Origin: Chryseobacterium culicis | GTDB lineage: Bacteria > Bacteroidota > Bacteroidia > Flavobacteriales > Weeksellaceae | Length of the DNA: 64,000 bases | Direction: 5' to 3' | Assembly (NCBI RefSeq): GCF_900108365.1 | Contig: NZ_FNWQ01000001.1 | Location: 620,001-684,000, forward strand | In this document: positions 4,329-60,190 of the stretch, in pieces | How positions within the stretch are numbered: position 1 is the first letter of the stretch | Layout of the letters: each line of letters starts with the position of its first letter | Notes under the pieces: generated by a model | What the model was told of the DNA's origin: nothing | The model's database searches: none | Seen by the model: only the letters and a program-made list of their open reading frames with translations | Program-made: the position numbers and the translations under genes

Positions 4329-4364
4329 AAAAGAGGCTGTCTCAAAAGTGAGACAGCCTCTTTT
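4329..4364. terminator. Bidirectional terminator between rpoN and the lanthipeptide operon
   Basis: A 16-bp stem, AAGAGGCTGTCTCA (4331-4344) paired with 4349-4362 and extended by A/T pairs, has a 4-base loop and T-rich flanks on both strands. It separates the convergent rpoN and the minus-strand operon ending at 4384. Confidence 0.85.
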
Positions 4365-4383: not shown

Positions 4384-4755
4384 CTAAGAAATCAGAAATA
4401 CCTGATCGCTGATCTTTTTGAACAGACTGAATGTATTGACCTGTTTTCCGTATTCTTTGCTTTCCCAAAATACTTTTCCGTCCCTGTAATCGTGCATCAG
4501 TACAAAAATTCCCCCATTGATCTTTAAGAATGCAATTGCAGGAAAACTGAGTTCCTCGATATCATTCCAGTCATCAAGCCTTACGACCATGGATTCTATA
4601 TCAAAGTCATTTTGTAGTATATTGTAAAAGCTGTAGAAATTATAATCTTCTATTGGGATGTTATAATCTCGTATTTTGCCTGCTTTTTTATGCTGCTTTA
4701 CAAATTTATTCAACAGAAAGTTGAAAGACAGTAAATACTCATATTTTCCAATCAT
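4384..4755 (-). CDS. Small C39-peptidase-like protein lacking catalytic residues
   Basis: A 123-residue soluble protein, last gene of the lanthipeptide operon and 15 bases after the glycosyltransferase-like gene. Residues about 40-123 resemble the second half of a C39 bacteriocin-processing peptidase domain: FPAIAFLKINGGIFVLM corresponds to the family pattern PxIAHxxxxHFVVL, followed by a KVFWESKEYG segment in place of the usual DP..G and a hydrophobic end. The N-terminal catalytic Cys and the His of HFVV are absent. It therefore probably does not cut. By analogy with C39-like domains of type I exporters it might bind the peptide. The homology is read by eye and is uncertain. Confidence 0.6.
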   Translation of the reverse strand: MIGKYEYLLSFNFLLNKFVKQHKKAGKIRDYNIPIEDYNFYSFYNILQNDFDIESMVVRLDDWNDIEELSFPAIAFLKINGGIFVLMHDYRDGKVFWESKEYGKQVNTFSLFKKISDQVFLIS

Positions 4756-4770
4756 AAATGCTGAAGGTTT

Positions 4771-6006
4771 TTAATAGATATAGTAGGCATGCTCCGTAAT
4801 CCTGTTCTGTATACTCTTAATGCTTATTTTATACGGAATATTTTCTCCGTTTTTATAATGAAAATCAATGGTGCTGATATTCTTTTTGCTTACACCGATC
4901 CATTGGTTGCCCTTAAGCTGGTAAAGAGAAAACTGATTATAATGAAGCATATTTTCGCCTTCGTTAATAATAATCAGTTTGTTTTTATCCTGCGGATAAA
5001 AGGTAATGTGGGTTTTCCCGATTTTATACGACTGCTCTTCCAGGAAATTGACATGCTGTTTCTGAGTATAAGCAAGAAGTTTAGATTTCATCAGTAAAAA
5101 CCTGTAACGTGTATTGGTGACTCTTTTCTCTATCTTCCTCCGGATTTTTTTTATAGGATAGGAAATCTTGTTAGAGGTGTAATGAATTCCCCGAGGTGAA
5201 ATAGAAAATTTACCCTTCGCATCAAACGGATCTATAAAGAAATAAGGATTGTCTTTAAGGTTGATAAGATGAATCAGAAGGTATTGTTTTTCAGTCACCG
5301 TATTGAAAATATTACCTTCCACCCAGTGATGGGTGACATCGGAGTACACGAATTCCTGAACGATGTTTTTGTGATAATATTTAATTTCTTTCTGAAGTTC
5401 AAGCTTCCGGACAACCAGTGTGAAGCTTTCAATTTCAGTCGGGATCTCAGTGATATCTTTGGAATGAACAAGGTTAAATTCAAAATTACATTCGTCAAAA
5501 CAGAAATGGCGGGTATTCTGAAGAATATGTGCATAGTCCTTACTCTTTTTGAAAAGATTGATGCACTGATCATTGTTCTTCAGTAAAGTGAAAAATCCGG
5601 CCGGATAGTTTTTGTGAGGCGATATTACATCATATTTCTTCAGTATTTTCTCTGTGATAAAATACCGGATATTCCCGAAGATAATATCAATGTCACAATA
5701 TCCCCAGAAGTCGTATTCCTTTAAATAGTCCTGAAATATCAGGCCATAGGTTGGCTTAAAATCACATAGTTTGTAACCGTCCAGAACGCTGATAGAAAGA
5801 CCCAGCTTTTCACTGGCTATTGTACTGAATTCGGCGAGGCTGCTGATCCTGATAAAATGCACATTCGGTAAATGAAATGGCGGTTCCAGATTGGTGAATA
5901 ATAAAAAATCAACATCCGGATTGTATTTGCAGCTGTATAAAAAATGATTGAAATACTCAGGCCAGCTTTTGCCAAAATAACAGTTTATTAATGCGATTCT
6001 GGTCAT
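4771..6006 (-). CDS. DUF6625-like glycosyltransferase-type protein
   Basis: The 411-residue protein begins with a Rossmann-like strand (RIALINCYFG) and has KLCDFKPTYGLIF followed by YCDIDIIFG, whose D105-x-D107 resembles the metal-binding DxD motif of GT-A glycosyltransferases. This combination fits the DUF6625 family, which I recognise from memory. No signal peptide or membrane segment is seen. It starts one base after the lanB stop, so it belongs to the same operon, and the parsimonious inference is that it glycosylates the lanthipeptide or a related molecule. The sugar and the acceptor residue are unknown. Confidence 0.7.
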   Translation of the reverse strand: MTRIALINCYFGKSWPEYFNHFLYSCKYNPDVDFLLFTNLEPPFHLPNVHFIRISSLAEFSTIASEKLGLSISVLDGYKLCDFKPTYGLIFQDYLKEYDFWGYCDIDIIFGNIRYFITEKILKKYDVISPHKNYPAGFFTLLKNNDQCINLFKKSKDYAHILQNTRHFCFDECNFEFNLVHSKDITEIPTEIESFTLVVRKLELQKEIKYYHKNIVQEFVYSDVTHHWVEGNIFNTVTEKQYLLIHLINLKDNPYFFIDPFDAKGKFSISPRGIHYTSNKISYPIKKIRRKIEKRVTNTRYRFLLMKSKLLAYTQKQHVNFLEEQSYKIGKTHITFYPQDKNKLIIINEGENMLHYNQFSLYQLKGNQWIGVSKKNISTIDFHYKNGENIPYKISIKSIQNRITEHAYYIY

Positions 6007-6007
6007 T

Positions 6008-9000
6008 TTATGTCAGTTTTTTAATATTCAGCAATGAGTCATAGCTTTTATGTAAAAAATAATACAGAATAGACTCGTGGATATTCGGTTTTGAAGCAAA
6101 CATTCTGTTGATAAACATATGAATATAGCTTACCACCAATGATTGAACCATTTGCTGAGATTGAAGTTCTTTAATCTCCGTAATATAACGGGCGGTTTTT
6201 TTAGTTCTTACATCCAGAATTTCAGAAAATTCATGTGCACCCGCAAGAAGTTCCAGGGTCTGATGCCTGTGATCTCTGTATTTATCTTTCAAAGTCTGTT
6301 TAGAATGATCATCCAGCATGCTTCCGTATCCATTGGCAAGCTGTTGCAGGATGTCTCTTTTTTCTGTCATCGTATACCCGAAATCGTCAAGAATACGGTT
6401 GATGCCTGCTGCGGCAGCTTTCCAGACGGGAGTTTCTGTATATTCAGTTTCTTTCAACAGCTGGCAGACACATTCACTGTCGAAGTAAAAAATGCTTTCC
6501 ATCTGATCTATCGTAGTTTCGCCATAGCGTTCAATTTCCCTGTTGTAAGTATCCAGCATAATTTTATGAATAATCATTTCCCGGGTCAGGAACTTGTCCA
6601 GTAACTGGTAAATCTGGCTGGAAAGGGTATGGTCCTGAGATGCAGTCAGAAACCTCACTCTGATATGCATGTCCGGATCGCTGTAACGGATAAAGAACCA
6701 TTTTTTTATAATTCCTTTTCTGACAAGTCCGTTGGCGAATTTATAGATGGTATCTTTAATAATCTGGTCCGAAACCTTTGTGCTGCAATAGATCTTATAG
6801 AAAAGCCATTCGCTTCCGGGTACGAAATTTCGCACAACCGTATTTTTTACAGGAAAAGGTGTTAGTTTTGATTTCTTTTGGCTGCTTACATTATGCCAGG
6901 GGATAAGAAATTCATTGCTGTGAGGATTCCCGTTTTCATCTCTGGTTACCGTTTTATATTGATCGGAAAGGTTTTCCAGCACTCTTATCTGTTTCTCTTT
7001 TACCAGATGATCAAAGAGAATTTCCAGCGAAAGAGGATTGTTGGTAAATACCGGAAGTTCCATATCTTTTTCGGTAAAAACACAGACCTCAGGAATGTTT
7101 TTCTCCTTTAGATACTCTTTGAAGACCTGAATATCAGGCTTCTTTCCCTTGAATATTTTCTGATCATCCAACAGCCATGATGCTCTGGAAAGGATCACAT
7201 TATTCATCATAATTCTGGGCAGAAATTCGTAATTCACAAACATTCCCCAGTTCCAGTTATAAGACGGCGTCATATGCTGGTACTGAAGATCACACAGAAA
7301 ATGATACATCGGTACTTTATGCAGGTTGTAATTATGCGCCGATGAAAGACTTGGGATTACTTCTTTATGATGCTTTTTGGAACGGAGAACAATTCTGTCA
7401 TTCTGCACCGAAATCATAAGATCCTCCAGATAAACAGGCTCGCTGTCTGCGTGGTGGCGGTTAATGATGGGAATTTCATATTTTCTTAGATGAGGTCTGA
7501 TGGTAATATTCCCGACTCTCGGCTGAGGATTGTGTACCACTTCAGCAATGATCTGCCCGTCATAGAATGATTCTTCTTCCACCAAAGCTTCTTGTACCAA
7601 TTTCTCCAGATGTTCATCCATATGGCAAAAACGTCCCAGATAAGTGGAAGACGAAGGTCCGTCACTGAATTTATGAAAGATAACAGGTTTTCCCTCCTCA
7701 TCTTCATAGATATGGGCAAGCGAAGACATTGAGAACGGGATGTTTTTATTCTCCTCTGAAAATGGAGAAACTTCTTCCTGCGTAATCTGTATTACATTCT
7801 CATTGTTTTTTAAGGCATTAATAAGCTTTTCTCCCAAAAACTGATTCCATTTCAGGGATCCCTGAATGACATTGGTTGTGTTTTCAGACTTAAACTGGAT
7901 TCCATCCGTCAGAGTGGGGTTGTCATTATCCGAATGTAGCGGATAGTTAATTCCCGATAACGGGTCAAGGGCTAACAATACCGGAATTTCCTGCTGATCA
8001 TATCTTGCAGTAAATTCTTTTTTAAAATTCTCCAGCGAATCAATATTGTCGGGTGCGCCGATCTGAAAGACTGTTGAAAGTACCTTTTTAAAATCTTTAA
8101 AAATATTTTTATCCAGCGTATTGGATGTTTTGCCCTTCAGTAAGTCGGTCTGAAGGATATTTTTTTTGTGGTTTTTGATTCCTATGGAATTTAAGATCTC
8201 AGAAATCTGATCAACTGCAAGAAATGTAGTATTGGTTTTATTGGCTTTCTGTACAATTTCAAATATGGTAATTAAACTGCGGATTAATGCTGCATCTTCT
8301 TTGTTTTCTTCATCAGCGGGAATGTTCAGTTCTTTTAAAAACTGATAGATAAAATCCTGAAAATTCTTGTCGGTAACCTTTGGTGAAAGCTCACTGATAA
8401 GAATTTTTGAGTCTATAAGATCATTAACATAGTCGAAACTATCCTCATAAGAAATGTCCTGGTTTACTAATATTTCTATGATGGAAGAAAGCTTCAAGCC
8501 GCTTTTACAGGCTTTTATGATAGAATTCAGGTATTTGTTTTTTTCGGTGGAAATAATTTCATACTTCAACCCGGAATCCCTGATGGTGGGCTCAATATAG
8601 CGGTATTTATTTTTGGTGCTGTAGATCGTATTGTTGGTATAGAAATGACAGACTTTTCTGACCTGCATATTTTCCTCCAGTTTTACCGTAATATCATGCA
8701 GCAGCTGCATATCCAGTCTTGCAAATATCTTATCCTGGTCCTTATCCAGAATGATTTCTGTACGGTCACTCCATTCTCCCTTACTTATTCCGGCATTGGT
8801 TCCGAAGGGGATGGTTCTGAAATGGGTTCTTAGCCAGTATTTCAGCAGTGATTTTTTGATCTTATCCGCTTTTTCTCCGGACAGTTTTTTTTCTTCCCAG
8901 TTGATGAGCTGTTCATACAAATCCGGTGATGACAGATAAATGGTATTGCGAAAGCTTTCTGTATGGATATCCTCCTCCCACTGATCAATGCTTTTTTGTG

Positions 9001-9058
9001 GAAGAAGCGGTGTTCTCAGCAGGTAAAAGCTCAGTTTTTCTATATCGTTGTATTTCAT
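6008..9058 (-). CDS. Class I lanthipeptide dehydratase (LanB)
   Basis: Dehydrates Ser and Thr of the precursor peptide to dehydroalanine and dehydrobutyrine. In this family the reaction uses glutamyl-tRNA as activator, followed by glutamate elimination. The 1016-residue length is that of a full-length LanB: a glutamylation domain spans about residues 1-700 and the SpaB_C-type elimination domain about 745-1010, with the typical motif FFIRYSDPDMHIRVRF. Its start overlaps the end of lanC by 4 bases (ATGA), implying translational coupling. The neighbouring cyclase and precursor confirm the role. I see no interruption. Confidence 0.93.
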   Translation of the reverse strand: MKYNDIEKLSFYLLRTPLLPQKSIDQWEEDIHTESFRNTIYLSSPDLYEQLINWEEKKLSGEKADKIKKSLLKYWLRTHFRTIPFGTNAGISKGEWSDRTEIILDKDQDKIFARLDMQLLHDITVKLEENMQVRKVCHFYTNNTIYSTKNKYRYIEPTIRDSGLKYEIISTEKNKYLNSIIKACKSGLKLSSIIEILVNQDISYEDSFDYVNDLIDSKILISELSPKVTDKNFQDFIYQFLKELNIPADEENKEDAALIRSLITIFEIVQKANKTNTTFLAVDQISEILNSIGIKNHKKNILQTDLLKGKTSNTLDKNIFKDFKKVLSTVFQIGAPDNIDSLENFKKEFTARYDQQEIPVLLALDPLSGINYPLHSDNDNPTLTDGIQFKSENTTNVIQGSLKWNQFLGEKLINALKNNENVIQITQEEVSPFSEENKNIPFSMSSLAHIYEDEEGKPVIFHKFSDGPSSSTYLGRFCHMDEHLEKLVQEALVEEESFYDGQIIAEVVHNPQPRVGNITIRPHLRKYEIPIINRHHADSEPVYLEDLMISVQNDRIVLRSKKHHKEVIPSLSSAHNYNLHKVPMYHFLCDLQYQHMTPSYNWNWGMFVNYEFLPRIMMNNVILSRASWLLDDQKIFKGKKPDIQVFKEYLKEKNIPEVCVFTEKDMELPVFTNNPLSLEILFDHLVKEKQIRVLENLSDQYKTVTRDENGNPHSNEFLIPWHNVSSQKKSKLTPFPVKNTVVRNFVPGSEWLFYKIYCSTKVSDQIIKDTIYKFANGLVRKGIIKKWFFIRYSDPDMHIRVRFLTASQDHTLSSQIYQLLDKFLTREMIIHKIMLDTYNREIERYGETTIDQMESIFYFDSECVCQLLKETEYTETPVWKAAAAGINRILDDFGYTMTEKRDILQQLANGYGSMLDDHSKQTLKDKYRDHRHQTLELLAGAHEFSEILDVRTKKTARYITEIKELQSQQMVQSLVVSYIHMFINRMFASKPNIHESILYYFLHKSYDSLLNIKKLT

Positions 9059-10209
9059 CCTATATTCATTAAGTAAATTTTATCCCAATCCTTTGCTTTT
9101 TCGGGATACTGATAATCCAGCAATACCATTCCTACCCCCGAAATACCTTCCAATAGCCCTGTATGTTCTACCCATTCGTCATTTTTAAGATCATAAGGGA
9201 ATTTGGCTCCTTTTTCCAGCTGGTTCAGAGTAAGAGACATCCAGTAATTGTGTGCTTCTTTCAGTTCTTCGTCTTGAAATATTCTGTAGAATTTATTGAA
9301 TATGTGTGAAATTCCCGCGGTTCCGTGGCATATTCCTGTGTCTATGCAGTCGTTTTTCTGACTGTAAAATACTCCGGATTTGTCTGCTTTTATTTTCGAT
9401 ACATTCAATATAAGGTGATGGCACATTGCTTTCAGGTTTTCGTCCTGCAAAACGGTATACGCTTTCCAGAGCCCGATTGCAACTCCCAGGTCGCCATAGC
9501 ACCATGCCAGTCTCTCGGATAACTGTTTTTCACCTGTTGCAATATTAAGTTTTGAAGGAAATATGTGCTGTGCCTGTTTATTTTCTTCGTAAAGTTCCTT
9601 AAGAAAGGTAACGCTTCCACTGATCAGTTTTGCACAGGTTTCTTTTTTGCATCCTCTGTGATAGCATTCGGCTAAAAAAGATAGGATAGAAGGCTGTCCG
9701 TGGGCAAGACCAAGGTCAATGATGTTCTCTTCTTTTACTATATGATCAATCCAGAAGATGGATTGGTTTCTTTCATGTTTCAGTTGGTCTATATGAGACA
9801 CTATTTTTTCTACGGCATCGAATTTCTTAATTTCAAGAAAGTAAATCCCCAATCCGATCAGGCCGGTAAATAAATCGTATTCTTTTTTATCTGCAGCGGC
9901 AGAAAGCAGTTCAAGAAAAAATTCAATAGAATCTTCTTCCAGACTGTCAATATCTTCATCTGTAATAATATCAGCATTGTGTAAAAGCCTCATAAAGTAA
10001 ATAATGGCTAAGCTTCCGGTTGCAAATGATGAGTAAGAAGCTTCTGAAGCCATATCAATGAGATCCTCAATTTTTTCAATCTCTACATCATTGTTGTAAA
10101 ATAATGAGTAGTATCCGTTTCCCAGGCTGAACGTGATGTTTTCACCTTTATCCTGATTACATTTTTCTGAAATTTGGGCTAAAAAGAAGTCAATTTTATC
10201 TTTATACAT
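9055..10209 (-). CDS. Lanthipeptide cyclase (LanC)
   Basis: Adds cysteine thiols to dehydrated residues to form lanthionine rings. The 384-residue protein shows the alpha-toroid repeats of LanC enzymes. The zinc ligands are present: Cys237 in LAWCYGD, and Cys294-His295 in ICHGTAG. His170 in LAHGQPS matches the proposed catalytic His of NisC, and Arg233 precedes the WCYG motif as in NisC. It overlaps the upstream monooxygenase gene by 8 bases and lanB by 4 bases, so the genes are tightly coupled. All key residues are in place, so the enzyme is expected to be active. Confidence 0.92.
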   Translation of the reverse strand: MYKDKIDFFLAQISEKCNQDKGENITFSLGNGYYSLFYNNDVEIEKIEDLIDMASEASYSSFATGSLAIIYFMRLLHNADIITDEDIDSLEEDSIEFFLELLSAAADKKEYDLFTGLIGLGIYFLEIKKFDAVEKIVSHIDQLKHERNQSIFWIDHIVKEENIIDLGLAHGQPSILSFLAECYHRGCKKETCAKLISGSVTFLKELYEENKQAQHIFPSKLNIATGEKQLSERLAWCYGDLGVAIGLWKAYTVLQDENLKAMCHHLILNVSKIKADKSGVFYSQKNDCIDTGICHGTAGISHIFNKFYRIFQDEELKEAHNYWMSLTLNQLEKGAKFPYDLKNDEWVEHTGLLEGISGVGMVLLDYQYPEKAKDWDKIYLMNIG

Positions 10210-11119
10210 ATTGGCTTAATATTTCAATAGCTGTTAGGGAATCTTTATGTGAACGCGAGATATTGTTAAACATAAATTCATTATATCCGTAGAGTTCTTT
10301 AAATTCCAGCAATTTTTCGTGAAAGAAACTTCCGTCTCCTACAAGGCTTATATTGCTTATATCATTGTTGGTACTCTTTTTAGCAACATTAATCGCCTTA
10401 CGTTTTGTTTTATGGCAGCATCCGGAAAATGTAAGGACCATGGACGGCTCTTTTCCGTGTTTTGCTTTATATTCTGTTCTGAAGTTTTGCAGCTCTTCCT
10501 TAAGATAATCCTTATTTGATTCTCCATGAAATATGGATCTTGCAAAATTGAGATCGTTCTCCAAAGCAACTTTTAAACCTGAGTGTGATGATCCCATATA
10601 CCATACATCCGGAATATTCCCTTTGTAAGGAGGAATGATGAGATCTTTTTCAAGAAATTCACTTTCATCTCTTAAAAAGCTGAGTGTAGATTCCAGTTTA
10701 GGAAGAAAAGAAGAAAAATAGTTTTCTTTATCTACATCTACATTAAAATATTTAAGATCATATTCACCAACCAGACCTTTTACAAATCCAAGGTCTAATC
10801 TTTTGGGATATAAACTGGATAACAGCTTATAATTGTGAGCCACTCTGAATGGGCTTTGCAAGGGAAGAATAACGCCTGCAATTCCTATTTTGATTTTTTC
10901 GGTTAATCCTAATAATATGGGAATCAGCATTTCAGGAGTAGACCACGCCATGTCATGGGCTTTTGAAAAATAGTTTTCGGTAACCCAAAACCTGGAAAAA
11001 CCCAGTTCATCCGCTCTTGTAGCATAGTCGATGATATCGTATAATGATTTCTTAGAATTGTTGAGTGAGTTTTCTCTTATGCCAAATTCTAAAAGGCCTA
11101 TTTTTAATTTATTTGCCAT
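10202..11119 (-). CDS. Luciferase-like flavin-dependent oxidoreductase of the lanthipeptide operon
   Basis: The 305-residue protein belongs to the bacterial luciferase-like (LLM class) superfamily: GLLEFGIRE at the N-terminus, GFSRFWVTENYFS, KIGIAGVILPLQSPFRVAH and PDVWYMGSSHSG are all typical. Such enzymes use FMN or F420 for oxidations or reductions. It is the first modification gene after the precursor and overlaps lanC. One known role of this superfamily in lanthipeptide clusters is the LanJC reductase, which turns dehydro-residues into D-amino acids. That role here is inference. An oxidative modification is the main alternative. Confidence 0.8.
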   Translation of the reverse strand: MANKLKIGLLEFGIRENSLNNSKKSLYDIIDYATRADELGFSRFWVTENYFSKAHDMAWSTPEMLIPILLGLTEKIKIGIAGVILPLQSPFRVAHNYKLLSSLYPKRLDLGFVKGLVGEYDLKYFNVDVDKENYFSSFLPKLESTLSFLRDESEFLEKDLIIPPYKGNIPDVWYMGSSHSGLKVALENDLNFARSIFHGESNKDYLKEELQNFRTEYKAKHGKEPSMVLTFSGCCHKTKRKAINVAKKSTNNDISNISLVGDGSFFHEKLLEFKELYGYNEFMFNNISRSHKDSLTAIEILSQYV

Positions 11120-11138
11120 AATAGAGCTATTAAAAGCA

Positions 11139-11158
11139 GCTACCCCTTACGGAGTAGC
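11139..11158 (-). terminator. Possible attenuator hairpin between precursor and modification genes
   Basis: Read on the minus strand, GCTACTCC and GGGGTAGC form an 8-bp stem (one G-U pair) with a GTAA tetraloop, followed by TGCTTTTAAT. The U tract is weak, so it would stop only part of the transcripts. That would allow more precursor than enzyme, as is common in lanthipeptide operons. Confidence 0.55.
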
Positions 11159-11184
11159 CACAGTTTTTTGTAAAATGTTTCTGA

Positions 11185-11370
11185 TTAAGATACAGGACAA
11201 ACACAAAGGTTAGTAGATCTGCTGCTTCCCGCAGTGCAAGTCCAGTGTGAACAATCGAAAACAGATGTTACTAGCTCTTTTCCAGCTTTTACTGATTTCA
11301 TTTCGTCAGAATTTAATTGAGATAACTTCTCTTTTTTAAGAGTTAACTTCTTTGTAAGCTTTTTGCTCAT
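11185..11370 (-). CDS. Class I lanthipeptide precursor peptide (LanA)
   Basis: A 61-residue peptide with a Lys-rich leader containing LTLKKEKLSQLNSDEM, which matches the LxLxK..I..LN..EM leader pattern of Bacteroidetes class I lanthipeptide precursors. A short VKAG segment follows and may mark the cleavage site. After that the core holds four Cys (VFDC, HWTC, NLC, VCP) and ten Ser/Thr, ending CVCPVS. Four (methyl)lanthionine rings are therefore possible, leaving up to six dehydratable residues without a Cys partner. It is the first gene of the operon with the LLM enzyme, LanC and LanB. No second precursor copy is seen. Confidence 0.9.
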   Translation of the reverse strand: MSKKLTKKLTLKKEKLSQLNSDEMKSVKAGKELVTSVFDCSHWTCTAGSSRSTNLCVCPVS

Positions 11371-11436
11371 GGTTAAAAAAATTTTAATTTGTACCTACTC
11401 GTTAGCTTTTCGGTTTCCGCTTTTTTATCAATTAAA

Positions 11437-13065
11437 TTATATTTTTAAAAATTTGATGACAGATGTGTTGATGGCATCCGGTTTTTCAAACGGCACATAA
11501 TGAGAGGCATCCGGAATAATCAGCAGCTGTGCGTTAGGGATACTGCTATTGATCATTTTGGTATGTTCTTCCCTGATCACATCGTTACTTCCTGCGATGA
11601 TCAAAACCGGATTTTTAATCCCTTTCAGCTGTTCTGTACTGATATGGGGGTGCTGAACCATTAGTTTGATCAGCCTCTGGTTAGGGGCATCTTTTATTTC
11701 AAGCTGTTTTTTAAAAGTATCCAGCGTTTTGGGTTCTATACCTTCCGGATTTGTATTGGCTCCGATAACAACAAGCTTGTTTACAAGATCAGGATGATTA
11801 ATCGTAAACAGTAATCCTGTAATTCCGCCGTCACTCCAGCCTAAAATATTAAATTTACTGATGTTAAGCTCTTTTGTTATGGCTAATAAATCATCAGAAA
11901 ATGTTTCGTACATGTAATCACCAGTGGAAAGATCCGTACTTCTTCCTTGCCCTCTTGTATCGATTGCGATGACTTTGAACTGCTTTGCAAGATCAGGAAT
12001 CTGCTTATAGAAATCTGATATGCTGCCATTGTTTCCATGAAGCAGGACAAGCGGTTCTCCGCTTCCATATTCTTCATAATATATTTTAGCGTTCTTAAGA
12101 TCTATATATTTTCCTGATTTATTCTTTCCATAGATTGTTTTTCTGGCCTGCTCTTTATTATTGTAATAATCCACCAGCGCCTGTTCTTCAGTGCTGTTTT
12201 CTGTTTTGCTTATCGTTTTGGGAGCGCTCCCGTTTTTATCTTTGAGGTAGCTGATGTCTATATTGGAGATGAAACTTCCTTTGCCGGTTTCCCATTTTCC
12301 CTGGCTCTGATAACGGAAAAGCAGGTCATTGGATAAGGTTTTTTTTGCTGAGATTCCGAATACGAAATCTACATTATCCTGCGGCACACTTTCAACGAGC
12401 TGTAAGGTAATGGCCAGCTGATCGAGATCACTATAAATGAGTTTATACTTTTGAAGATCTATCGTTTGCCATCCTGTAGTACCTGTTTTGTAAATAATGT
12501 TTTCATACAGGAGAGATTCCTGCGGAATATTGTCCTTGACAGAATAGATATTCAGTTTCAAAGTAATTTCCTTGAATTTTGAACTCGGAATGATATAAAA
12601 ATTATAGCTGTTAAGTTTGGTCCATCTGTAAATGTTGAATACCTGTCCCTGCTCTATAGTAGGAACATTTTTATCAAACATTTTAGAGAAAGTAAGCATC
12701 GGCCGTTTTGTGTTGCCAACAGCTTCATTTTTTGGCTTTTTCCCTGTTAGATTGATTTCCTGAATCGCATTGGTTTTTTTACTTAATTTGATATGGGCAT
12801 CTGAAATAATTGCCTGCACGGTAACTTTTTTATCGTCATAGCCGTTGGATTCGAAAATAAGGTGATCGCTTTTCCTGGTATCTTCAGGGATTTCTATTGA
12901 GTAGTTCCCATGACTATCTGTAATGGTGCTGATATTTACATTCTCAAGACTTACTGAACAGTAAGAAATTGCCTGGTTGCTTTCATCGGTAACTTTTCCA
13001 GATATTTTTTGAGAGTAAATACTTATACTAAGCAATAACACACCTAGTACCAATATGATTTTCAT
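11437..13065 (-). CDS. Secreted alpha/beta hydrolase with N-terminal CarboxypepD_reg-like domain
   Basis: The 542-residue protein has a signal peptide at 1-18 (ending SISIYSQ) and a carboxypeptidase-regulatory-like beta-sandwich (KISGKVTDESNQAISYCSVS) to about residue 95. A middle region of unknown fold follows, then an alpha/beta hydrolase from about residue 310. The hydrolase has oxyanion motif LLHGNNG, nucleophile elbow GWSDGG, the acid in AGSNDV and the His in DASHYVPF. It probably acts in the periplasm or at the surface; the substrate is unknown. It lies 66 bases upstream of the lanthipeptide precursor on the same strand with no clear terminator between. Co-transcription is possible but not shown. 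Confidence 0.8.
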   Translation of the reverse strand: MKIILVLGVLLLSISIYSQKISGKVTDESNQAISYCSVSLENVNISTITDSHGNYSIEIPEDTRKSDHLIFESNGYDDKKVTVQAIISDAHIKLSKKTNAIQEINLTGKKPKNEAVGNTKRPMLTFSKMFDKNVPTIEQGQVFNIYRWTKLNSYNFYIIPSSKFKEITLKLNIYSVKDNIPQESLLYENIIYKTGTTGWQTIDLQKYKLIYSDLDQLAITLQLVESVPQDNVDFVFGISAKKTLSNDLLFRYQSQGKWETGKGSFISNIDISYLKDKNGSAPKTISKTENSTEEQALVDYYNNKEQARKTIYGKNKSGKYIDLKNAKIYYEEYGSGEPLVLLHGNNGSISDFYKQIPDLAKQFKVIAIDTRGQGRSTDLSTGDYMYETFSDDLLAITKELNISKFNILGWSDGGITGLLFTINHPDLVNKLVVIGANTNPEGIEPKTLDTFKKQLEIKDAPNQRLIKLMVQHPHISTEQLKGIKNPVLIIAGSNDVIREEHTKMINSSIPNAQLLIIPDASHYVPFEKPDAINTSVIKFLKI

Positions 13066-34049: not shown

Positions 34050-34739
34050 ATGTTAGTAATTCAGGATTTAAACAAGTCATACGATACAGGGAAAAGCAAG
34101 CTTCATGTTCTCAAAGGAATTAATCTGAATATTTCTGAAGGGGAGTTTGTTTCTATTATGGGAAGTTCCGGTTCCGGAAAATCCACGCTTCTTAATATTA
34201 TCGGGATTCTGGATGAGAAAGATTCAGGAACTTATGAACTGGACGGAGTTCCTATCGAGCATCTTTCTGAAGTAAAGGCTGCAGAATACAGAAGCAGATT
34301 CCTGGGATTTATTTTCCAGTCTTTTAACCTTATCAATTATAAAACGGCTTTGGAAAATGTAGCACTTCCCCTGTACTATCAGAACGTACCGAGAAAGGAG
34401 CGAAATAAGAAAGCTCTGGAATATCTGGAAAAAGTAGGGCTGGCACAGTGGGCAAACCACCTTCCCAGTGAGCTTTCCGGAGGTCAGAAACAGAGAGTGG
34501 CTATAGCAAGAGCTTTGATTACCGACCCAAAAGTAGTACTGGCAGATGAGCCTACCGGAGCATTGGATTCCAAAACAACTCATGATATTATGAAACTGCT
34601 TCAGGATATCAATAATGAAGGGAAAACAATCATCGTTGTAACCCACGAGCCGGACGTGGCTGCACAGACCAAAAGAAATGTAGTGCTGAAGGACGGGATT
34701 ATTGAAAGTGATGAGTTTATTAAGCAGATTGTACTATAG
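34050..34739 (+). CDS. ABC transporter ATP-binding protein (MacB/LolD type)
   Basis: The 229-residue ATPase has Walker A GSSGSGKST, Q-loop in FIFQSFNLI, signature LSGGQKQRVAIARAL, Walker B VVLADEPTGALDS and the H-loop VVTHEP. Length and the DEPTGALDS sequence are typical of MacB/LolD-type ATPases that power mechanotransmission rather than classical import. It is followed by two FtsX-like permeases and a membrane-fusion protein, so it is the motor of a tripartite exporter. Confidence 0.95.
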   Translation: MLVIQDLNKSYDTGKSKLHVLKGINLNISEGEFVSIMGSSGSGKSTLLNIIGILDEKDSGTYELDGVPIEHLSEVKAAEYRSRFLGFIFQSFNLINYKTALENVALPLYYQNVPRKERNKKALEYLEKVGLAQWANHLPSELSGGQKQRVAIARALITDPKVVLADEPTGALDSKTTHDIMKLLQDINNEGKTIIVVTHEPDVAAQTKRNVVLKDGIIESDEFIKQIVL

Positions 34740-34831
34740 GAATTTGATAATTTGAAAATAAGATAATTTGAAAATTTTACTGATTTTGTTTTTAATCTTT
34801 AAATTTTTCAATCTTTAAATACCCATAAAAA

Positions 34832-36061
34832 ATGTTTGACCTAGATCGTTGGCAGGAAATATTCAGTTCTATCCGGAGCAATGTGCTCAGGACGGTACTT
34901 TCAGGGTTTACAGTAGCCTTGGGGCTGTTTATTTTTATTGTGCTTTTCGGAATTGGAAAAGGGCTTCAGAATGCTTTCTCAGAAGGATTCTCAGGCGATG
35001 CCAAAAACCTGATTACCATTGTTACAGGGAAAACTACAATAGCTTATAAAGGACTGCAGTCTGACAGAACAGTTACATTGAATAACGGTGATTATGATTT
35101 CCTTATTAATGCAGATAAAAAAAATGTAGGCGCTTCAAGTCCCAGGTACAATGCCAGCTTAATGGTAAAATATGGAAAAGAAAGCGGAATTTATCAGGTT
35201 CACGGAGCTGAACCCGGAGAGCAGGTCATTGAAAACCGAAAGATGATTGACGGCAGATATATCACTCCCCGAGATTTAGAAGGAAAACAAAATGTGGCGG
35301 TTATCGGAAGAATGGTTCAGAGGGATTTAATTAAAAACGGGAGTCCTGTAGGAAAAGAATTAGACATTAATGGATCCATATTTAAGGTAATAGGTGTTTT
35401 TTCAGATGATGGCGGAGACTGGGATGAAAGACATATCACTGTACCTATTACGACCTTACAGCAGATGAAAAAAGGCTCAGATACGGTGAATATCGCTTAC
35501 ATTTCATACAGTGATAAGCTGACTCCGGAGCAGGCCATTAAATATGGGGATGAGCTGAAAGATAAATTAAAATCGAGAAAAAATGTATCTCCTGATGATG
35601 AAAACGGAGTGCGTGTCTGGAACAATGCAAAGAACATGAATGATACCTTTATATTTATGGCAGTTCTTACAGCCATTGTAGGATTTATTGGTCTTGGAAC
35701 GCTGCTTGCCGGAATTATCGGGATCAGTAATATCATGGTGTACATTGTAAAAGAAAGAACCAAAGAGATTGGGGTACGAAAAGCCATCGGAGCAAAACCA
35801 AGCGGAATTGTAGGACTGATTGTTCAGGAAAGTGTTGTCATTACAGTAGTATCAGGGCTTGTTGGAGTAGGCATAGGTGTTCTGACCTTAAGTCTTATTG
35901 GGGATAGTCTTGAAGAATTCTTCATTAAAAGTCCAAGTGTAGGATGGGGATCTATTATGATGGCATTCATTGCTTTGATTTTCTCAGGATTGATCGCAGG
36001 ATTTGTACCCGCATACAGAGCTTCAAGAATTAAACCGATAGAAGCATTGAGAACGGAATAA
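34832..36061 (+). CDS. ABC transporter permease, MacB/FtsX type
   Basis: The 409-residue protein has one transmembrane segment near 20-42, a periplasmic MacB-PCD-like domain (about 50-270), and three segments in the C-terminal FtsX domain near 275-400. It ends YRASRIKPIEALRTE, the family's typical closing. It begins FDLDRWQEIFSSIRSNVLRT and shares the layout of the next gene, implying duplication and a heterodimeric permease. Confidence 0.93.
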   Translation: MFDLDRWQEIFSSIRSNVLRTVLSGFTVALGLFIFIVLFGIGKGLQNAFSEGFSGDAKNLITIVTGKTTIAYKGLQSDRTVTLNNGDYDFLINADKKNVGASSPRYNASLMVKYGKESGIYQVHGAEPGEQVIENRKMIDGRYITPRDLEGKQNVAVIGRMVQRDLIKNGSPVGKELDINGSIFKVIGVFSDDGGDWDERHITVPITTLQQMKKGSDTVNIAYISYSDKLTPEQAIKYGDELKDKLKSRKNVSPDDENGVRVWNNAKNMNDTFIFMAVLTAIVGFIGLGTLLAGIIGISNIMVYIVKERTKEIGVRKAIGAKPSGIVGLIVQESVVITVVSGLVGVGIGVLTLSLIGDSLEEFFIKSPSVGWGSIMMAFIALIFSGLIAGFVPAYRASRIKPIEALRTE

Positions 36062-36122
36062 TAATTTGAAAAAGATAAACGAATTAAGAGAACTTATAAT
36101 TCATAACTAATAATTCAGCAAG

Positions 36123-37394
36123 GTGAATATCATATTTAAAAAAGATACTTGGCAGGAAATTTATTATTCTTTGAGGAATAATAAGCTCCGAACATTTCTT
36201 ACCATGATTGGCGTAGGATGGGGAATGTTTTTGTATGTAAGCCTTCTTGGAGCTGCAAAAGGAATGGAGAACGGTTTTGATAAATTGTTCTCAGGTTTTG
36301 CTACCAATTCCATCTTTCTGTGGGCGCAGAAAACCTCCATTCCTTATGAAGGATTTCCAAAAGGAAGAGAAGTTCATCTGAACTTAACCGATATGGAAAT
36401 GCTGAAAAGAAAAGTAACCGCCATAGATTATATATCACCTCAAAATGCAAGAGGAAGTTTTACCGGAACACCGGGAGAATCGATGTCCAGAAACGGAAAG
36501 AACGGAACGTATTCGCTTACCGGAGACTACTCTGTAGGAAATAAAATTTCGGAAAAGAAACTGATCTTCGGACGTTACATCAATGATGCCGACGTTTCAG
36601 GAAATAAAAATGTAGTGGTAATTGGGGAAGAAATTTATAAAAACTTCTTTGATGCCAAGAAAAAAGAAAATCCGATAGGAAAATCAATCAATATTAAGGG
36701 GCTGTTCTTTAATGTAATTGGAGTTTTCCGTGTGAAAAAAGGAGGCGGATTTGAAAATGACCAGACGGCTTTTATTCCACTTTCTACATACACAAAAATG
36801 TATAATGCGGGAGATCAGATAGACATGTTTGCCATCGTAAGTAAGCCGAATGCCAATGTGAATTCTGTAGAAGAAGACGTAAAGCAGGTGCTGAAATCAA
36901 AAAATAAGGTTTCACCCGAAGATACCAACGCATTTGGAAGTTTCAACTTAGGAAAAGAATTTAAAAAACTGACAGGTTTCCTTACGGGAATGCAGTTGTT
37001 AACCATCATTGTAGGTACACTAACCATCCTTGCAGGAGTTATTGCTATTTCGAATATCCTTCTGATTACGGTCAAAGAAAGAACCAAAGAAATCGGGATC
37101 AGAAGAGCGTTGGGAGCCAAACCGGCAGAGGTAAGAAATCAGATTTTGCTGGAAAGTGTCGTCATTACGCTCTCCTCGGGGTTACTGGGCTTTATGTTCG
37201 GAATTTTTGTACTGATGATTCTAAACGCCGTTACCCAGGGACAGGATTCATTTCCTTTCTATAACCCGACGGTCAATTACGGAAACGTATTTGCGGCAAT
37301 GGCGGTAATGGTCATTTTAGGACTGGTAATCGGGATGATTCCGGCGCAAAGAGCAGTTAAGATCAGACCTATTGAAGCATTAAGAACAGAATAA
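36123..37394 (+). CDS. ABC transporter permease, MacB/FtsX type (second)
   Basis: The 423-residue protein has the same MacB/FtsX layout as the preceding permease. It starts NIIFKKDTWQEIYYSLRNNK and ends QRAVKIRPIEALRTE. The start is a GTG at 36123; no ATG lies in a suitable place in this frame. The two permeases probably pair with the ATPase as a heterodimer. Confidence 0.93.
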   Translation: MNIIFKKDTWQEIYYSLRNNKLRTFLTMIGVGWGMFLYVSLLGAAKGMENGFDKLFSGFATNSIFLWAQKTSIPYEGFPKGREVHLNLTDMEMLKRKVTAIDYISPQNARGSFTGTPGESMSRNGKNGTYSLTGDYSVGNKISEKKLIFGRYINDADVSGNKNVVVIGEEIYKNFFDAKKKENPIGKSINIKGLFFNVIGVFRVKKGGGFENDQTAFIPLSTYTKMYNAGDQIDMFAIVSKPNANVNSVEEDVKQVLKSKNKVSPEDTNAFGSFNLGKEFKKLTGFLTGMQLLTIIVGTLTILAGVIAISNILLITVKERTKEIGIRRALGAKPAEVRNQILLESVVITLSSGLLGFMFGIFVLMILNAVTQGQDSFPFYNPTVNYGNVFAAMAVMVILGLVIGMIPAQRAVKIRPIEALRTE

Positions 37395-37443
37395 TTAATT
37401 TTCCACATCATTCAATCTATTTAATAAAAAATAAACTATACAT

Positions 37444-38655
37444 ATGAAAAAGAAATTCACCTGGAAAAAAGCCATTTATATAGTACTGGGGCTTTTATTT
37501 GCAGTGGCATTGTTCTCGGGGCTCGGTTATCTTATCAAATCAAACTCTAAAGAAGGTGAGGCTTTCCTTACCCGTAAGCCTACAGTCCAGAATATGGATG
37601 ATAAAGTAATGGCTACTGGGAAAATTGTTCCGAAAGAAGAAATTGAAATCAAACCGAATATTGCAGGGATCATAGATAAAATCTTGGTAAAGGAAGGCGA
37701 TAAGGTAGAAGTGGGGCAGCTGATAGCCACTGTAAAAATTGTTCCGAGCATCTCCGAAGTAAATGCTGCACAGCAGGAAGTTCAGAATGCACAGATCCAG
37801 ATCAGCAACGCCCAGATGAACGTAGGAAATATGCAGAAGCAGTTCGAAATGCAGGATAAATTATACAAGCAGGGAGTCGCTTCAAAACAGGAATTTCTGA
37901 ATTCCCAGCAGCAGTTATACGCTCAGCAGCAGACTTTGAAAAATGCACAGCAGCAATTAAATACCGCTCAGAAAAGATTACAGATTGCCAAAACAGGAGC
38001 AACTCCTGAGCTTAAAGGGCAAGGTTTAGCTACTACGGAAATCCGTTCCAAAGCTTCAGGTACTGTACTTGAAGTTCCTGTAAAAGCGGGAAGCCAGGTG
38101 ATTGAAGCCAATAACTTTAACGCCGGAACTACCATCTGTTCCGTAGCAGATCTGAATGTTCTGATCTTTAAAGGTGAAATTGATGAAGCACAAGCCGGAA
38201 AACTAAGCGAAGGAATGGATATGAACATCGTAATCGGTGCCCTACAGAACAAAACTTTCCCAGGAAAACTAACCATGATCGCGCCTAAAGGAAAAGATAA
38301 TGCAGGAACTATCAAATTTCCGGTAGAAGGTAATGTAACTAATCCTAATAATGATTATATTAGAGCAGGTTTTTCTGCCAATGGTGAAATTGTTTTGAGT
38401 TCTCAGAAAAATGCATTATTATTGGACGAGTCTTTAGTTCAGTACGAAAAGAAACAGGGAAAAGATGTTCCTTTTGTAGAAGTGAAGCAAAAAGACGGGA
38501 AATTTAAGAAAGTATATGTGAAACTGGGAGCAAGTGACGGTATCAACGTACAGATTCTTCCTGGATCCAATATTACAAAAGACACTGAAATAAAAGTGTG
38601 GAACCCATCTGATAAAGATAAAGAAGAGCTTAAAGAAAAAGCGAATAAAAAATAA
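37444..38655 (+). CDS. Membrane-fusion protein of the efflux system (MacA/HlyD type)
   Basis: The 403-residue protein has one N-terminal membrane anchor (about 9-28), a barrel-sandwich lipoyl domain (VMATGKIVPKEEIEIKPNIA), and a long Gln/Ala-rich coiled-coil hairpin at about 105-180. The second lipoyl half (IRSKASGTVLEVPVKAGSQV) and a beta-barrel domain follow. It bridges the permeases to an outer-membrane channel; no TolC-like gene is nearby, so a shared channel is likely. The exported substrate is unknown. A terminator follows at 38684-38722. Confidence 0.93.
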   Translation: MKKKFTWKKAIYIVLGLLFAVALFSGLGYLIKSNSKEGEAFLTRKPTVQNMDDKVMATGKIVPKEEIEIKPNIAGIIDKILVKEGDKVEVGQLIATVKIVPSISEVNAAQQEVQNAQIQISNAQMNVGNMQKQFEMQDKLYKQGVASKQEFLNSQQQLYAQQQTLKNAQQQLNTAQKRLQIAKTGATPELKGQGLATTEIRSKASGTVLEVPVKAGSQVIEANNFNAGTTICSVADLNVLIFKGEIDEAQAGKLSEGMDMNIVIGALQNKTFPGKLTMIAPKGKDNAGTIKFPVEGNVTNPNNDYIRAGFSANGEIVLSSQKNALLLDESLVQYEKKQGKDVPFVEVKQKDGKFKKVYVKLGASDGINVQILPGSNITKDTEIKVWNPSDKDKEELKEKANKK

Positions 38656-44203: not shown

Positions 44204-44239
44204 ATGAACACCAATAAAGACAATGTACAATTCTCTTAG
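44204..44239 (+). other. Possible 11-codon leader ORF
   Basis: ATG at 44204 begins MNTNKDNVQFS and stops at 44237-44239, overlapping the first 17 bases of the next gene in another frame. It lies downstream of the locus promoter. Translation is not shown. Confidence 0.3.
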
Positions 44240-46151: not shown

Positions 46152-46187
46152 GAGGAATATAAGTGTATATTTGTACAATTTTAAAAT

Positions 46188-47006: not shown

Positions 47007-47010
47007 ATTA

Positions 47011-49395: not shown

Positions 49396-49397
49396 TG

Positions 49398-50690: not shown

Positions 50691-50699
50691 ACATTTACA

Positions 50700-51890: not shown

Positions 51891-51917
51891 CCTCCAAGAC
51901 TAAAATATACATTTCAT

Positions 51918-53048: not shown

Positions 53049-53073
53049 TAATCAACTATAAAAAGAAAAAAAT

Positions 53074-53646: not shown

Positions 53647-53652
53647 TATAGA

Positions 53653-54669: not shown

Positions 54670-54718
54670 TAATTGCTAGCAACAATTTTGTTGTGGGAAA
54701 ATGTAATGATAAAATAGA

Positions 54719-56053: not shown

Positions 56054-56128
56054 GGGATTGTTAATCGTAAAATTATTATTTGTTGAACAAATCACATTTT
56101 ATAATATAAAATTTAAAACAAAAATCAA

Positions 56129-57883: not shown

Positions 57884-57933
57884 TTAAGGGCTATTTCCAG
57901 AAGTTTAAATTAAGAAAAGGTTACTATTTATTT

Positions 57934-60153: not shown

Positions 60154-60190
60154 ATTATTAATAAGATACCCATAAAAATCACTATATGTT

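What the first reader, a model, noticed from the sequence alone, without database searches (positions are those of the whole stretch)
4384..11370. Complete-looking class I lanthipeptide operon without a transporter
Precursor (four Cys, ten Ser/Thr in the core), LLM flavoenzyme, LanC, LanB, a DUF6625-type glycosyltransferase-like protein and a C39-like protein overlap or abut each other on one strand. LanC zinc ligands and the LanB C-terminal domain are intact. Few lanthipeptides are described from Bacteroidetes (the pinensins are the example I know), and this set of tailoring genes is unusual. No LanT, LanP or immunity gene lies within the window.
Basis: partly seen in the sequence, partly recalled or inferred. 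Interest (0 to 1): 0.7.

Follow-up and report, generated by a model that had tools for sequence, protein, structure and literature searches.

The report
Lanthipeptide operon lacking its own exporter
This is a real, conserved set of genes for a sulfur-bridged peptide (a class I lanthipeptide) in Chryseobacterium, carrying an unusual pair of extra genes (a probable sugar-adding enzyme and a disabled protease-like protein) and lacking an exporter of its own, which it probably borrows from another place in the genome.

Summary
lanA, an LLM flavoenzyme, lanC, lanB, a DUF6625 gene and a 123-aa gene run on the minus strand at 11370-4384. The same six-gene order, without a C39 exporter nearby, occurs in 12 other Chryseobacterium genomes, and a related cluster with a near-identical core in another family.

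New points. (1) The 123-aa protein is a free-standing, catalytically dead C39 peptidase domain: relatives pass Pfam's Peptidase_C39 cut-off, and Cys, His and Asp are lost in 15 of 15. In 320 genomes of the family it sits beside a full-length DUF6625 match in 15 of 15 carriers, 12 in lanthipeptide and 3 in NRPS clusters. (2) DUF6625 keeps an invariant DxD and often neighbours C39 exporters, so it is probably a peptide glycosyltransferase. (3) lanA carries a DUF805b cis-RNA (Rfam RF02914) that also precedes bacteriocin-like peptides, one inside the genome's C39-ABC/HlyD exporter locus on another contig. That exporter type lies beside the homologous cluster in the other family, so export in trans is the likeliest answer to the missing transporter.

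New variant of a known kind. Glycosylation, substrate holding and export in trans are inferred, not shown.

The parts
11437..13065 (-). CarbopepD_reg-like plus alpha/beta-hydrolase protein (542 aa) with a signal-peptide-like start, 66 nt upstream of lanA; possible accessory gene (maturation protease or self-protection), membership uncertain
   Evidence: Pfam. A 32%-identical homologue with both domains follows the C39-like gene in the G787 cluster. Still upstream of lanA in L016 and L024, where rpoN and asnS are not adjacent. Against: only the N-terminal 277-313 residues match in L019-L023.
11392..11423 (-). DUF805b cis-regulatory RNA element (RF02914), ending 21 nt before the lanA start codon
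   Evidence: 39.3 bits, gathering score 35.6, E 1.5e-9. Its 27-nt core is identical in the window and in 21 of 21 orthologous loci. 15 hits in own genome, 10 over cut-off.
11185..11370 (-). lanA precursor, 61 aa: leader 11281-11370 ending VKAG, core 11188-11280 with 4 Cys and 10 Ser/Thr (cleavage site inferred)
   Evidence: NF038153 29.9 bits. 13-sequence alignment: S-x3-C-[ST]-x-WTCTAGS-[ST]-RS-x3-C-x-C kept in all.
11136..11161 (-). Stable hairpin between lanA and the LLM gene, read as a partial terminator or processing site (function inferred)
   Evidence: -18.1 kcal/mol, z -3.3. A hairpin at a similar place in 11 of 11 orthologues folded, with differing bases.
10202..11119 (-). LLM flavoenzyme (305 aa), candidate LanJC-type reductase of dehydroamino acids
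   Evidence: PF00296 66.5 bits; TIGR03558 128.8 bits, below its 166.95 cut-off.
9055..10209 (-). LanC cyclase (384 aa)
   Evidence: PF05147 150.5 bits; WCYG and CHG motifs aligned with solved LanC-like proteins.
6008..9058 (-). Full-length LanB dehydratase (1016 aa), N-terminal and C-terminal domains fused
   Evidence: PF04738 and PF14028; PDB relatives 9g04 and 5ehk.
4771..6006 (-). Long DUF6625 protein (411 aa): putative GT-A-like glycosyltransferase domain plus a C-terminal extension of about 160 aa
   Evidence: PF20330 195.6 bits over residues 6-251. D105 and D107 invariant in 17 of 17 divergent members aligned.
4384..4755 (-). Free-standing degenerate C39-like domain (123 aa), proposed docking partner of DUF6625
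   Evidence: PF03412 22.9-34.8 bits, over cut-off, in 10 of the 15 family genomes that carry it and 39.7 bits in G787; the window's own copy is below cut-off. hhalign to C39 domains 93%, E 2.7e-7. Catalytic Cys, His and Asp absent in 15 of 15 aligned.
4329..4364 (.). Perfect inverted repeat flanked by A and T runs: probable bidirectional terminator shared with convergent rpoN
   Evidence: Read from the sequence.

Best explanation
The operon makes a class I lanthipeptide. LanB dehydrates Ser/Thr of the core using Glu-tRNA, and LanC closes up to four thioether rings (simplest assignment S36-C40, S/T41-C45, S52-C56, S/T53-C58). The LLM enzyme reduces one or more of the left-over dehydro residues to D-amino acids (LanJC-type). 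The DUF6625 protein adds a sugar to a residue left in the core. The small C39-like protein, a protease domain that has lost its catalytic residues, holds the peptide substrate for DUF6625 instead of cutting it. Leader removal and export are done in trans, most likely by the C39-ABC/HlyD exporter on contig C18, whose locus carries the same DUF805b cis-RNA that precedes lanA. Shown here: the gene set, its conservation, the dead C39 homology (by sequence), the DUF6625/C39-like pairing, and the shared cis-element. Inferred: every chemical step, substrate holding by the C39-like protein, and the identity of the exporter.
For: Families and intact domains. Six-gene order in 21 of 21 loci from 12 other Chryseobacterium genomes and purifying selection against five relatives. 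Core nearly identical in a different family, G787. LanJC precedent for LLM enzymes (PMC7268733 passages). C39-like protein and full-length DUF6625 match in the same 15 of 320 genomes, adjacent on one strand by coordinates in 15 of 15: 12 in this operon (window) and 3 in NRPS clusters. Catalytic residues lost in 15 of 15 C39-like proteins; known C39-like domains recruit substrate without cutting (PMC6363468 passages). D105/D107 invariant in 17 of 17 DUF6625. C39-ABC gene in 9 of 27 other DUF6625 loci read, about 8 kb either side. G787 has HlyD and a C39-ABC (56% identical to the C18 one) next to the cluster. DUF805b before lanA and before a peptide gene between the C18 ABC and HlyD genes, but not at gathering score in the C9 cluster that has its own LanT.
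Against: No product, expression or mass data. The leader ends in AG, not GG, in 12 of 12 Chryseobacterium precursors aligned, and C39 leaders are described as ending in GG, GA or GS. C39 domains are in 27 of 27 Chryseobacterium genomes tested, 12 of them without this operon or the NRPS-type pair, so their presence does not discriminate. The pair also sits in NRPS clusters where I saw no leader peptide, which weakens leader docking. No GT fold was shown for DUF6625: model pLDDT 46.5, no PDB sequence match, no glycosyltransferase family among Pfam hits. No C39 chain was among the fold-search rows. G787's cluster has no DUF805b match at gathering score, and its LLM gene (26% to the C9 LLM as best hit) is separated from lanA by a gene on the other strand. 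10 of 27 DUF6625 loci have neither a C39 exporter nor a VKOR-type protein nearby, four of them among glycosyltransferase-like genes by eye.
Confidence: 0.55

Rival explanations
1. Class I lanthipeptide operon as above, but DUF6625 and the C39-like protein form a self-protection pair rather than tailoring the peptide, for example by modifying the cell envelope target or sequestering the peptide.
For: I saw no other candidate immunity gene. The pair occurs in a lanthipeptide and in an NRPS pathway, as a resistance or target-modifying pair could. DUF6625 also occurs among glycosyltransferase-like genes (G519, G711, G940, G224; by eye).
Against: The pair is the last part of a tightly packed biosynthetic operon. 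Other DUF6625 genes lie beside C39 exporters and, in some loci, GG-leader-like peptides, which fits peptide tailoring better. The C39 fold is a peptide-binding fold.
Confidence: 0.2
2. The exporter is the LanT of the second cluster (contig C9), used by both precursors, rather than the C18 exporter.
For: Both are class I systems with related leaders (NF038153 hits); the C9 LanT is a C39-ABC of 735 aa.
Against: The C9 precursors end in GG and the focal one in AG. DUF805b is in the C18 locus and not, at gathering score, in the C9 cluster. The exporter beside the G787 cluster hits the C18 ABC first, at 56% identity.
Confidence: 0.2
3. The product is not exported by a C39 system at all: the neighbouring alpha/beta hydrolase or another hidden protease removes the leader and another pump exports the peptide.
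For: The VKAG leader end is non-canonical in 12 of 12 Chryseobacterium precursors aligned. An alpha/beta hydrolase with a CarbopepD_reg-like domain accompanies the cluster here and in G787. Unclustered lanthipeptide proteases are known (PMC8960859, abstract).
Against: In G787 the leader is GG and a C39-ABC lies beside the cluster. The upstream gene matches only over its N-terminal part in L019-L023.
Confidence: 0.15
4. The operon is silent or decaying and makes nothing.
For: No C39 exporter in the locus; one relative, L023, has a broken DUF6625 frame.
Against: dN/dS well below 1 in each of the six genes where it could be calculated; an invariant 27-nt cis-element; full-length lanB and lanC in 10 of 10 named relatives. 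In L023 the neighbouring rpoN is also split, which suggests assembly error.
Confidence: 0.05

Closest known systems
Chryseobacterium sp. OV715 ChmABC and Runella limosa RuiABC class I lanthipeptides (PMC9993889, passages and section 7 read)
   Same: Bacteroidota class I LanA/LanB/LanC; same genus for ChmABC; both made in E. coli with the Chryseobacterium GluRS/tRNA-Glu.
   Different: ChmA formed three rings with all Cys used and seven dehydrations; the focal core has four Cys and ten Ser/Thr. Those sequences were not at hand, so I did not compare them directly.
LanJC (luciferase-like monooxygenases that reduce dehydro residues, birimositide; PMC7268733, passages read)
   Same: PF00296 LLM enzyme encoded with a lanthipeptide.
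   Different: LanJC was proposed from a two-component system of the lacticin 3147 type in Streptomyces; no activity was tested here and no sequence comparison with that enzyme was made.
Second lanthipeptide cluster of the same genome (G000:C9)
   Same: LanA, LanC, LLM and LanB with related leaders.
   Different: Has five precursors, two LanC and its own C39-ABC exporter; I saw no DUF6625 or C39-like gene in its ORF list, and no DUF805b at gathering score.
C39-like domains of type I exporters (HlyB-type CLD; PMC6363468, passages read)
   Same: C39 family domain without a working active site.
   Different: Those are the N-terminal part of an ABC transporter; this one is a separate 123-aa protein paired with DUF6625.
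Glycosylated RiPPs (glycocins, PMC9576775 passages; class V cacaoidin, PMC8068269 listing and start of abstract only; NAI-112 recalled)
   Same: Ribosomal peptide cluster with a glycosyltransferase.
   Different: DUF6625 is not, as far as I recall, a family used there; searches of the held library listed no class I lanthipeptide with DUF6625.
DUF805b RNA (Rfam RF02914)
   Same: The element before lanA passes the curated score.

Membership tests
Class I lanthipeptide pathway | LanB dehydratase with N-terminal and C-terminal (elimination) domains | tested here: met
   PF04738 34-681 and PF14028 751-1006 of 1016 aa
Class I lanthipeptide pathway | Separate LanC cyclase with zinc-ligand motifs | tested here: met
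   PF05147 150.5 bits; WCYG and CHG aligned with solved LanC-like chains; that these are the zinc ligands is recalled
Class I lanthipeptide pathway | Precursor with class I leader and Ser/Thr/Cys core | tested here: met
   NF038153 29.9 bits, cut-off 22; LxLxKx5L leader visible (LTLKKEKLSQL), motif from PMC7268733
Class I lanthipeptide pathway | (Methyl)lanthionine rings in the product | not testable with these tools
   needs expression and mass spectrometry
Class I lanthipeptide cluster, usual layout | LanT or C39-ABC exporter in the cluster | tested here: not met
   both own-genome C39 domains lie on other contigs; no ABC hit over 200 aa to either own exporter, and no HlyD hit, in 21 of 21 relatives' loci of 19.5-23 kb
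LanJC | LLM (PF00296) enzyme in a lanthipeptide operon | tested here: met
   66.5 bits, cut-off 27.9; gene between lanA and lanC
LanJC | Reduction of dehydro residues to D-amino acids | not testable with these tools
   no activity data
Peptidase C39 (active protease) | Catalytic Cys, His and Asp | tested here: not met
   absent in 15 of 15 C39-like proteins aligned with 8 C39-ABC domains that have them
C39-like (degenerate) domain | Sequence membership of PF03412 | tested here: met
   by family, not by the window copy: window protein 14.8 and L024 18.1 bits are below the 22 cut-off, L055 35.9 and G787 39.7 over it; 10 of 15 genomes over cut-off in six-frame search
C39-like (degenerate) domain | C39 fold | tested here: inconclusive
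   model pLDDT 69.7; no C39 among the Foldseek or VIA-align rows shown
GT-A glycosyltransferase (DUF6625) | DxD motif | tested here: met
   D105 and D107 invariant in 17 of 17; that this is the GT-A DxD is recalled knowledge
GT-A glycosyltransferase (DUF6625) | GT-A fold | tested here: inconclusive
   model failed, pLDDT 46.5; no PDB sequence relative up to E 10
DUF805b RNA (RF02914) | Score over the gathering cut-off | tested here: met
   39.3 bits, cut-off 35.6
DUF805b RNA (RF02914) | Paired stem kept by compensatory changes | tested here: met
   34 distinct sites from 45 hits: two of seven pairs tested hold 32 and 33 of 34 standard pairs against shuffle means 23.8 and 21.8 (max 28 and 27); two others scarcely vary; one (26 of 34) has no change on the second side; the two outer ones do not beat shuffles (6 of 34 and 23 of 34)

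The most novel reading that the evidence does not exclude
DUF6625 plus a free-standing dead C39 domain is a portable peptide-glycosylation module: the protease fold has been turned into a substrate-holding subunit for a glycosyltransferase and moves between lanthipeptide and non-ribosomal pathways. The lanthipeptide it serves belongs to a Chryseobacterium-wide DUF805b-RNA regulon of bacteriocin-like peptides that share one C39-ABC/HlyD exporter.
Probability: 0.3. Interest if true: 0.8.

Novelty: new variant of a known kind. Interest (0 to 1): 0.6.

Why it matters
If right, it gives a function to two nameless things (DUF6625 and the DUF805b RNA), shows a peptidase fold recruited as a tailoring partner, and explains how transporter-less peptide clusters of Bacteroidota could get their product out. 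Each point can be tested with a few genes in laboratory strains. The precursor core is almost unchanged between two bacterial families, which suggests a strict target worth finding.

Tried and rejected
Structure: AlphaFold2 of the C39-like protein with 11 sequences gave pLDDT 69.7; Foldseek found no hit at E 0.001 or better (50 of 377 rows shown), and the VIA-align rows shown (50 of 66 with Z 2 or more, best Z 3.6) held no C39 chain, so homology rests on sequence profiles. DUF6625 modelled badly and was not fold-searched.

Rejected: that the C39-like protein is a working leader protease (active-site residues gone); that it is just the leftover of a lost LanT (it also occurs beside NRPS genes and, in G787, alongside a full C39-ABC); that the presence of C39 exporters in operon-bearing genomes is evidence in itself (27 of 27 tested genomes have a C39 match). 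Of the weak A1 hits in 432-462-aa frames, the two I read (L059, L060/L046) look like M16-type peptidases by eye; all of those weak hits were dropped. A flavobacterial TTG/TAnnTTTG promoter was searched for in 150 nt before lanA and not found in 11 of 11. The MFE fold of the isolated DUF805b region of lanA is weak (z +1.34), so its structure rests on Rfam and on covariation.

Rows dropped: L023 from the DUF6625 alignments because its frame is broken; L024b (second lanA copy) because it contains Ns; three of 23 regex-flagged 'GG peptides' among the 30 relatives' DUF805b loci (L212, L214, L220), which look like Sec signal peptides by eye. A6 used 9 of at least 13 unbroken DUF6625 sequences then in hand. 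G282 and the second G093 DUF6625 locus, and the second and third G444 ones except as ORFs in L147, were not followed. In the Rfam search of other loci six of the nine sources first asked for were run; L019, L145 and L147 were not.

Full report
WHAT IS THERE. On the minus strand at 11370-4384 lie lanA (61 aa), an LLM flavoenzyme (305 aa), LanC (384 aa), LanB (1016 aa), a DUF6625 protein (411 aa) and a 123-aa protein. Pfam and NCBIfam confirm LanB (both domains), LanC, the LLM, DUF6625 and a class I lanthipeptide leader for lanA. LanB aligns almost end to end with 9g04, a protein named for thiopeptide-type bacteriocin biosynthesis, and over residues 41-872 with the lantibiotic dehydratase 5ehk. 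The LanC motifs that I recall as zinc ligands align with those of solved LanC-like proteins. rpoN lies convergently downstream, followed by asnS.

IT IS CONSERVED. A pattern scan of the genome-contig collection, which finds close relatives, gave 12 loci with a relative of this LanB. Ten are Chryseobacterium, and in ten of ten the six genes stand in the same order on one strand; in one, L023, the DUF6625 frame is broken. With G097 and G178 this makes 12 other Chryseobacterium genomes; 21 of 21 loci checked (nine genomes twice, judged by equal contig lengths) have the six genes in order, the 27-nt cis-element described below, and no ABC or HlyD match to the two own-genome exporters. Of the ten named loci, eight lie beside rpoN; L016 and L024 lie elsewhere, with the hydrolase gene still upstream of lanA. 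The other two of the twelve (a Chitinophaga MAG and a Bacteroidetes MAG) match only in LanC and LanB (LanB 31% and 30%), with a C39-ABC gene directly after LanB. dN/dS of the window genes against five relatives is 0.007-0.25 in 22 of 30 comparisons; eight were saturated and gave none, and the lowest value rests on a near-saturated dS.

A RELATIVE IN ANOTHER FAMILY. G787 (same class, different family) has LanA, LanC, LanB, DUF6625 (36%), a C39-like gene and a CarbopepD_reg/alpha-beta-hydrolase gene in a row, then HlyD and a C39-ABC on the other strand; an LLM gene lies upstream, behind a gene on the other strand, and is closest to the C9 LLM (26%). Its precursor is 56% identical to the focal one, with a GG leader. 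Across 13 precursors (12 Chryseobacterium and G787) the core keeps S-x3-C-[ST]-x-W-T-C-T-A-G-S-[ST]-R-S-x3-C-x-C. The simplest ring pattern is four short rings closed by S36-C40, S/T41-C45, S52-C56 and S/T53-C58; this is inference. In a search of 395 genomes of the class, 17 had a match at E 0.001 or better, but only G000, G033 and G787 had matches over 100 bits; the others score 35.3 bits or less and mostly cover the leader.

THE 123-AA PROTEIN IS A DEAD C39 DOMAIN. Alone it scores 14.8 bits against Peptidase_C39 (cut-off 22), but relatives score up to 39.7, and in 10 of the 15 family genomes that carry it the Pfam model passes its cut-off in six-frame search. Its family profile finds C39 exporters (E down to 2.6e-7), hhalign gives 93% (E 2.7e-7, 63 columns) against three C39 domains, and the G787 member's best PDB match by sequence is a C39 peptidase (7n87, E 0.024, weak). 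The catalytic Cys, His and Asp are missing in 15 of 15. Fold comparison did not confirm this: the model was mediocre and no C39 chain was listed.

IT IS COUPLED TO DUF6625. In 320 genomes of the family, strong matches to the C39-like protein (E below 1e-19) occur in 15 genomes (nine further genomes have weak matches only), and full-length DUF6625 matches occur in the same 15 (in G137 the frame is broken). The two genes are adjacent on one strand in 15 of 15 by coordinates. Twelve are this operon (window). Three are not lanthipeptide loci: there the pair follows NRPS genes, an ABC gene without C39 match, and hydrolases, and in the two read further upstream also a macrolide-type glycosyltransferase. 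So the pair behaves as a unit that serves different peptide pathways. The other 16 family genomes with a DUF6625 match at E 1e-20 or better have partial matches only, and none of them is among the C39-like carriers.

DUF6625 AND PEPTIDE EXPORT. I read 27 further DUF6625 loci, about 8 kb either side or to the contig end. In 9 a C39-ABC gene lies nearby (G444, G336, G448, G819, G787, G432, G110, G150, G168), in G444 together with LanB and LanC. In 8 more a VKOR/thioredoxin protein of the C18 type lies nearby; seven of those eight appear to be one orthologous locus. Pfam found no C39 match in the two VKOR proteins tested, so their C39-like N-terminus rests on alignment only and on one profile hit (G547). 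In 10 there is neither; four of these (G519, G711, G940, G224) sit among glycosyltransferase-like genes by eye. With two C39 exporters in 4.9 Mb, such a window would hold one about 1% of the time by my estimate, a few times more in genomes with more exporters. D105, D107 and E172 are invariant in 17 of 17 divergent members. That pattern suggests a GT-A enzyme, but no fold was shown.

A SHARED CIS-RNA. Before lanA a 27-nt stretch is identical in the window and the relatives while its surroundings vary. It is a DUF805b RNA, RF02914 (39.3 bits, cut-off 35.6). The genome has 15 hits, 10 over cut-off, and 97 of 98 Chryseobacterium genomes have at least one. In the 45 loci read the element ends 18-29 nt before the first ATG frame of at least 35 aa. 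In the own genome 8 of 15 sites precede a short peptide with a double-glycine-type leader (lanA counted); of the 30 sites in relatives, one per genome from the top of the list, 20 do so after I removed three false positives by eye. These are the best sites, not a random sample. Of five such peptides that I chose, four pass NCBIfam's 'bacteriocin-like protein' leader model; the fifth, the C18 peptide, scores 20.9 against 23.5. Two base pairs covary well above shuffles; the two outermost pairs do not.

WHY EXPORT IN TRANS. One DUF805b site lies in the C18 locus between the C39-ABC gene and HlyD, before a 64-aa GG peptide. The second lanthipeptide cluster, which has its own LanT, has no DUF805b at gathering score. 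The homologous G787 cluster sits next to an exporter whose first hit is the C18 ABC (56%). Together these point to the C18-type exporter. Against this, the Chryseobacterium leaders end in AG where C39 leaders are said to end in GG, GA or GS, C39 exporters are present in genomes without the operon too, and G787 has no DUF805b at gathering score.

HAIRPIN. The 65-nt gap between lanA and the LLM gene holds a strong hairpin (-18.1 kcal/mol, z -3.3), and similar hairpins form in 11 of 11 orthologues folded. I read it as a device that keeps more precursor than enzyme message; this is inference.

PUBLISHED CONTEXT. Class I lanthipeptides of Bacteroidota with LxLxKx5L leaders and C39 proteases are described in PMC7268733, which also named LanJC (passages). 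Chryseobacterium and Runella examples have been made in E. coli (PMC9993889, passages and section 7). LanB is absent from Bacteroidales in one survey (PMC10352776, passages). PMC10734526 and PMC9576775 were seen as passages. A Pedobacter study was seen only as a reference-list entry and is not held. Searches for DUF6625 and for DUF805b each returned 0 papers; a DUF805/RNA motif search listed 10 of 31 papers, none with DUF805. Combined searches on lanthipeptide, Chryseobacterium, glycosyltransferase and C39 terms listed none that, from titles, abstract starts and the passages I read, describes this operon. Most subscription papers are not in the library.

VERDICT. This is a real and functional-looking class I lanthipeptide operon, known in kind. 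The DUF6625/dead-C39 pair, its presence in NRPS clusters, and the DUF805b link to a shared exporter are the parts that deserve attention.

Noticed in passing
G000 contigs C8, C9, C11, C17, C18, C19 (L224-L238); L194-L223 in relatives: The DUF805b RNA (RF02914) occurs in 97 of 98 Chryseobacterium genomes and often sits about 20 nt before start codons of bacteriocin-like GG peptides, but also before other genes such as a caspase-like and a tail-collar-like protein (names by eye).
   Followed up: partly
L027 (G000:C9:640001-660000): A second, complete class I lanthipeptide cluster: five near-identical precursors, two LanC, LLM, LanB and a C39-ABC exporter.
   Followed up: partly
L055-L057, L061, L062: NRPS clusters of three Chryseobacterium genomes carry a DUF6625 plus C39-like pair and hydrolases, two of them (the two read upstream) also a macrolide-type glycosyltransferase-like gene; the product is unknown.
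   Followed up: partly
L024:7289-7880: Two tandem DUF805b-lanA units in Chryseobacterium sp. SSA4.19; the first copy runs into Ns.
   Followed up: no
L145/L147 (G444): A Flavobacteriales-order lanthipeptide cluster with a LanB split into 745 and 304 aa, a DUF6625 gene and a C39-ABC/HlyD exporter side by side (order name inferred from kinship to Chryseobacterium).
   Followed up: partly
L174 (G432): Three DUF6625 pieces interleaved with large GG-leader-like proteins (283 and 451 aa) upstream of a C39-ABC/HlyD pair.
   Followed up: no
window 34050-38655: MacB-type ABC ATPase, two FtsX-like permeases and a membrane fusion protein (identified by eye); no link to the operon seen.
   Followed up: no
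window 44223-63314: Polysaccharide/O-antigen-type biosynthesis cluster (identified by eye).
   Followed up: no
L001 (G000:C15:299335-300120): A stand-alone Lant_dehydr_C protein (open frame 288 aa) elsewhere in the genome, a possible further RiPP locus.
   Followed up: no
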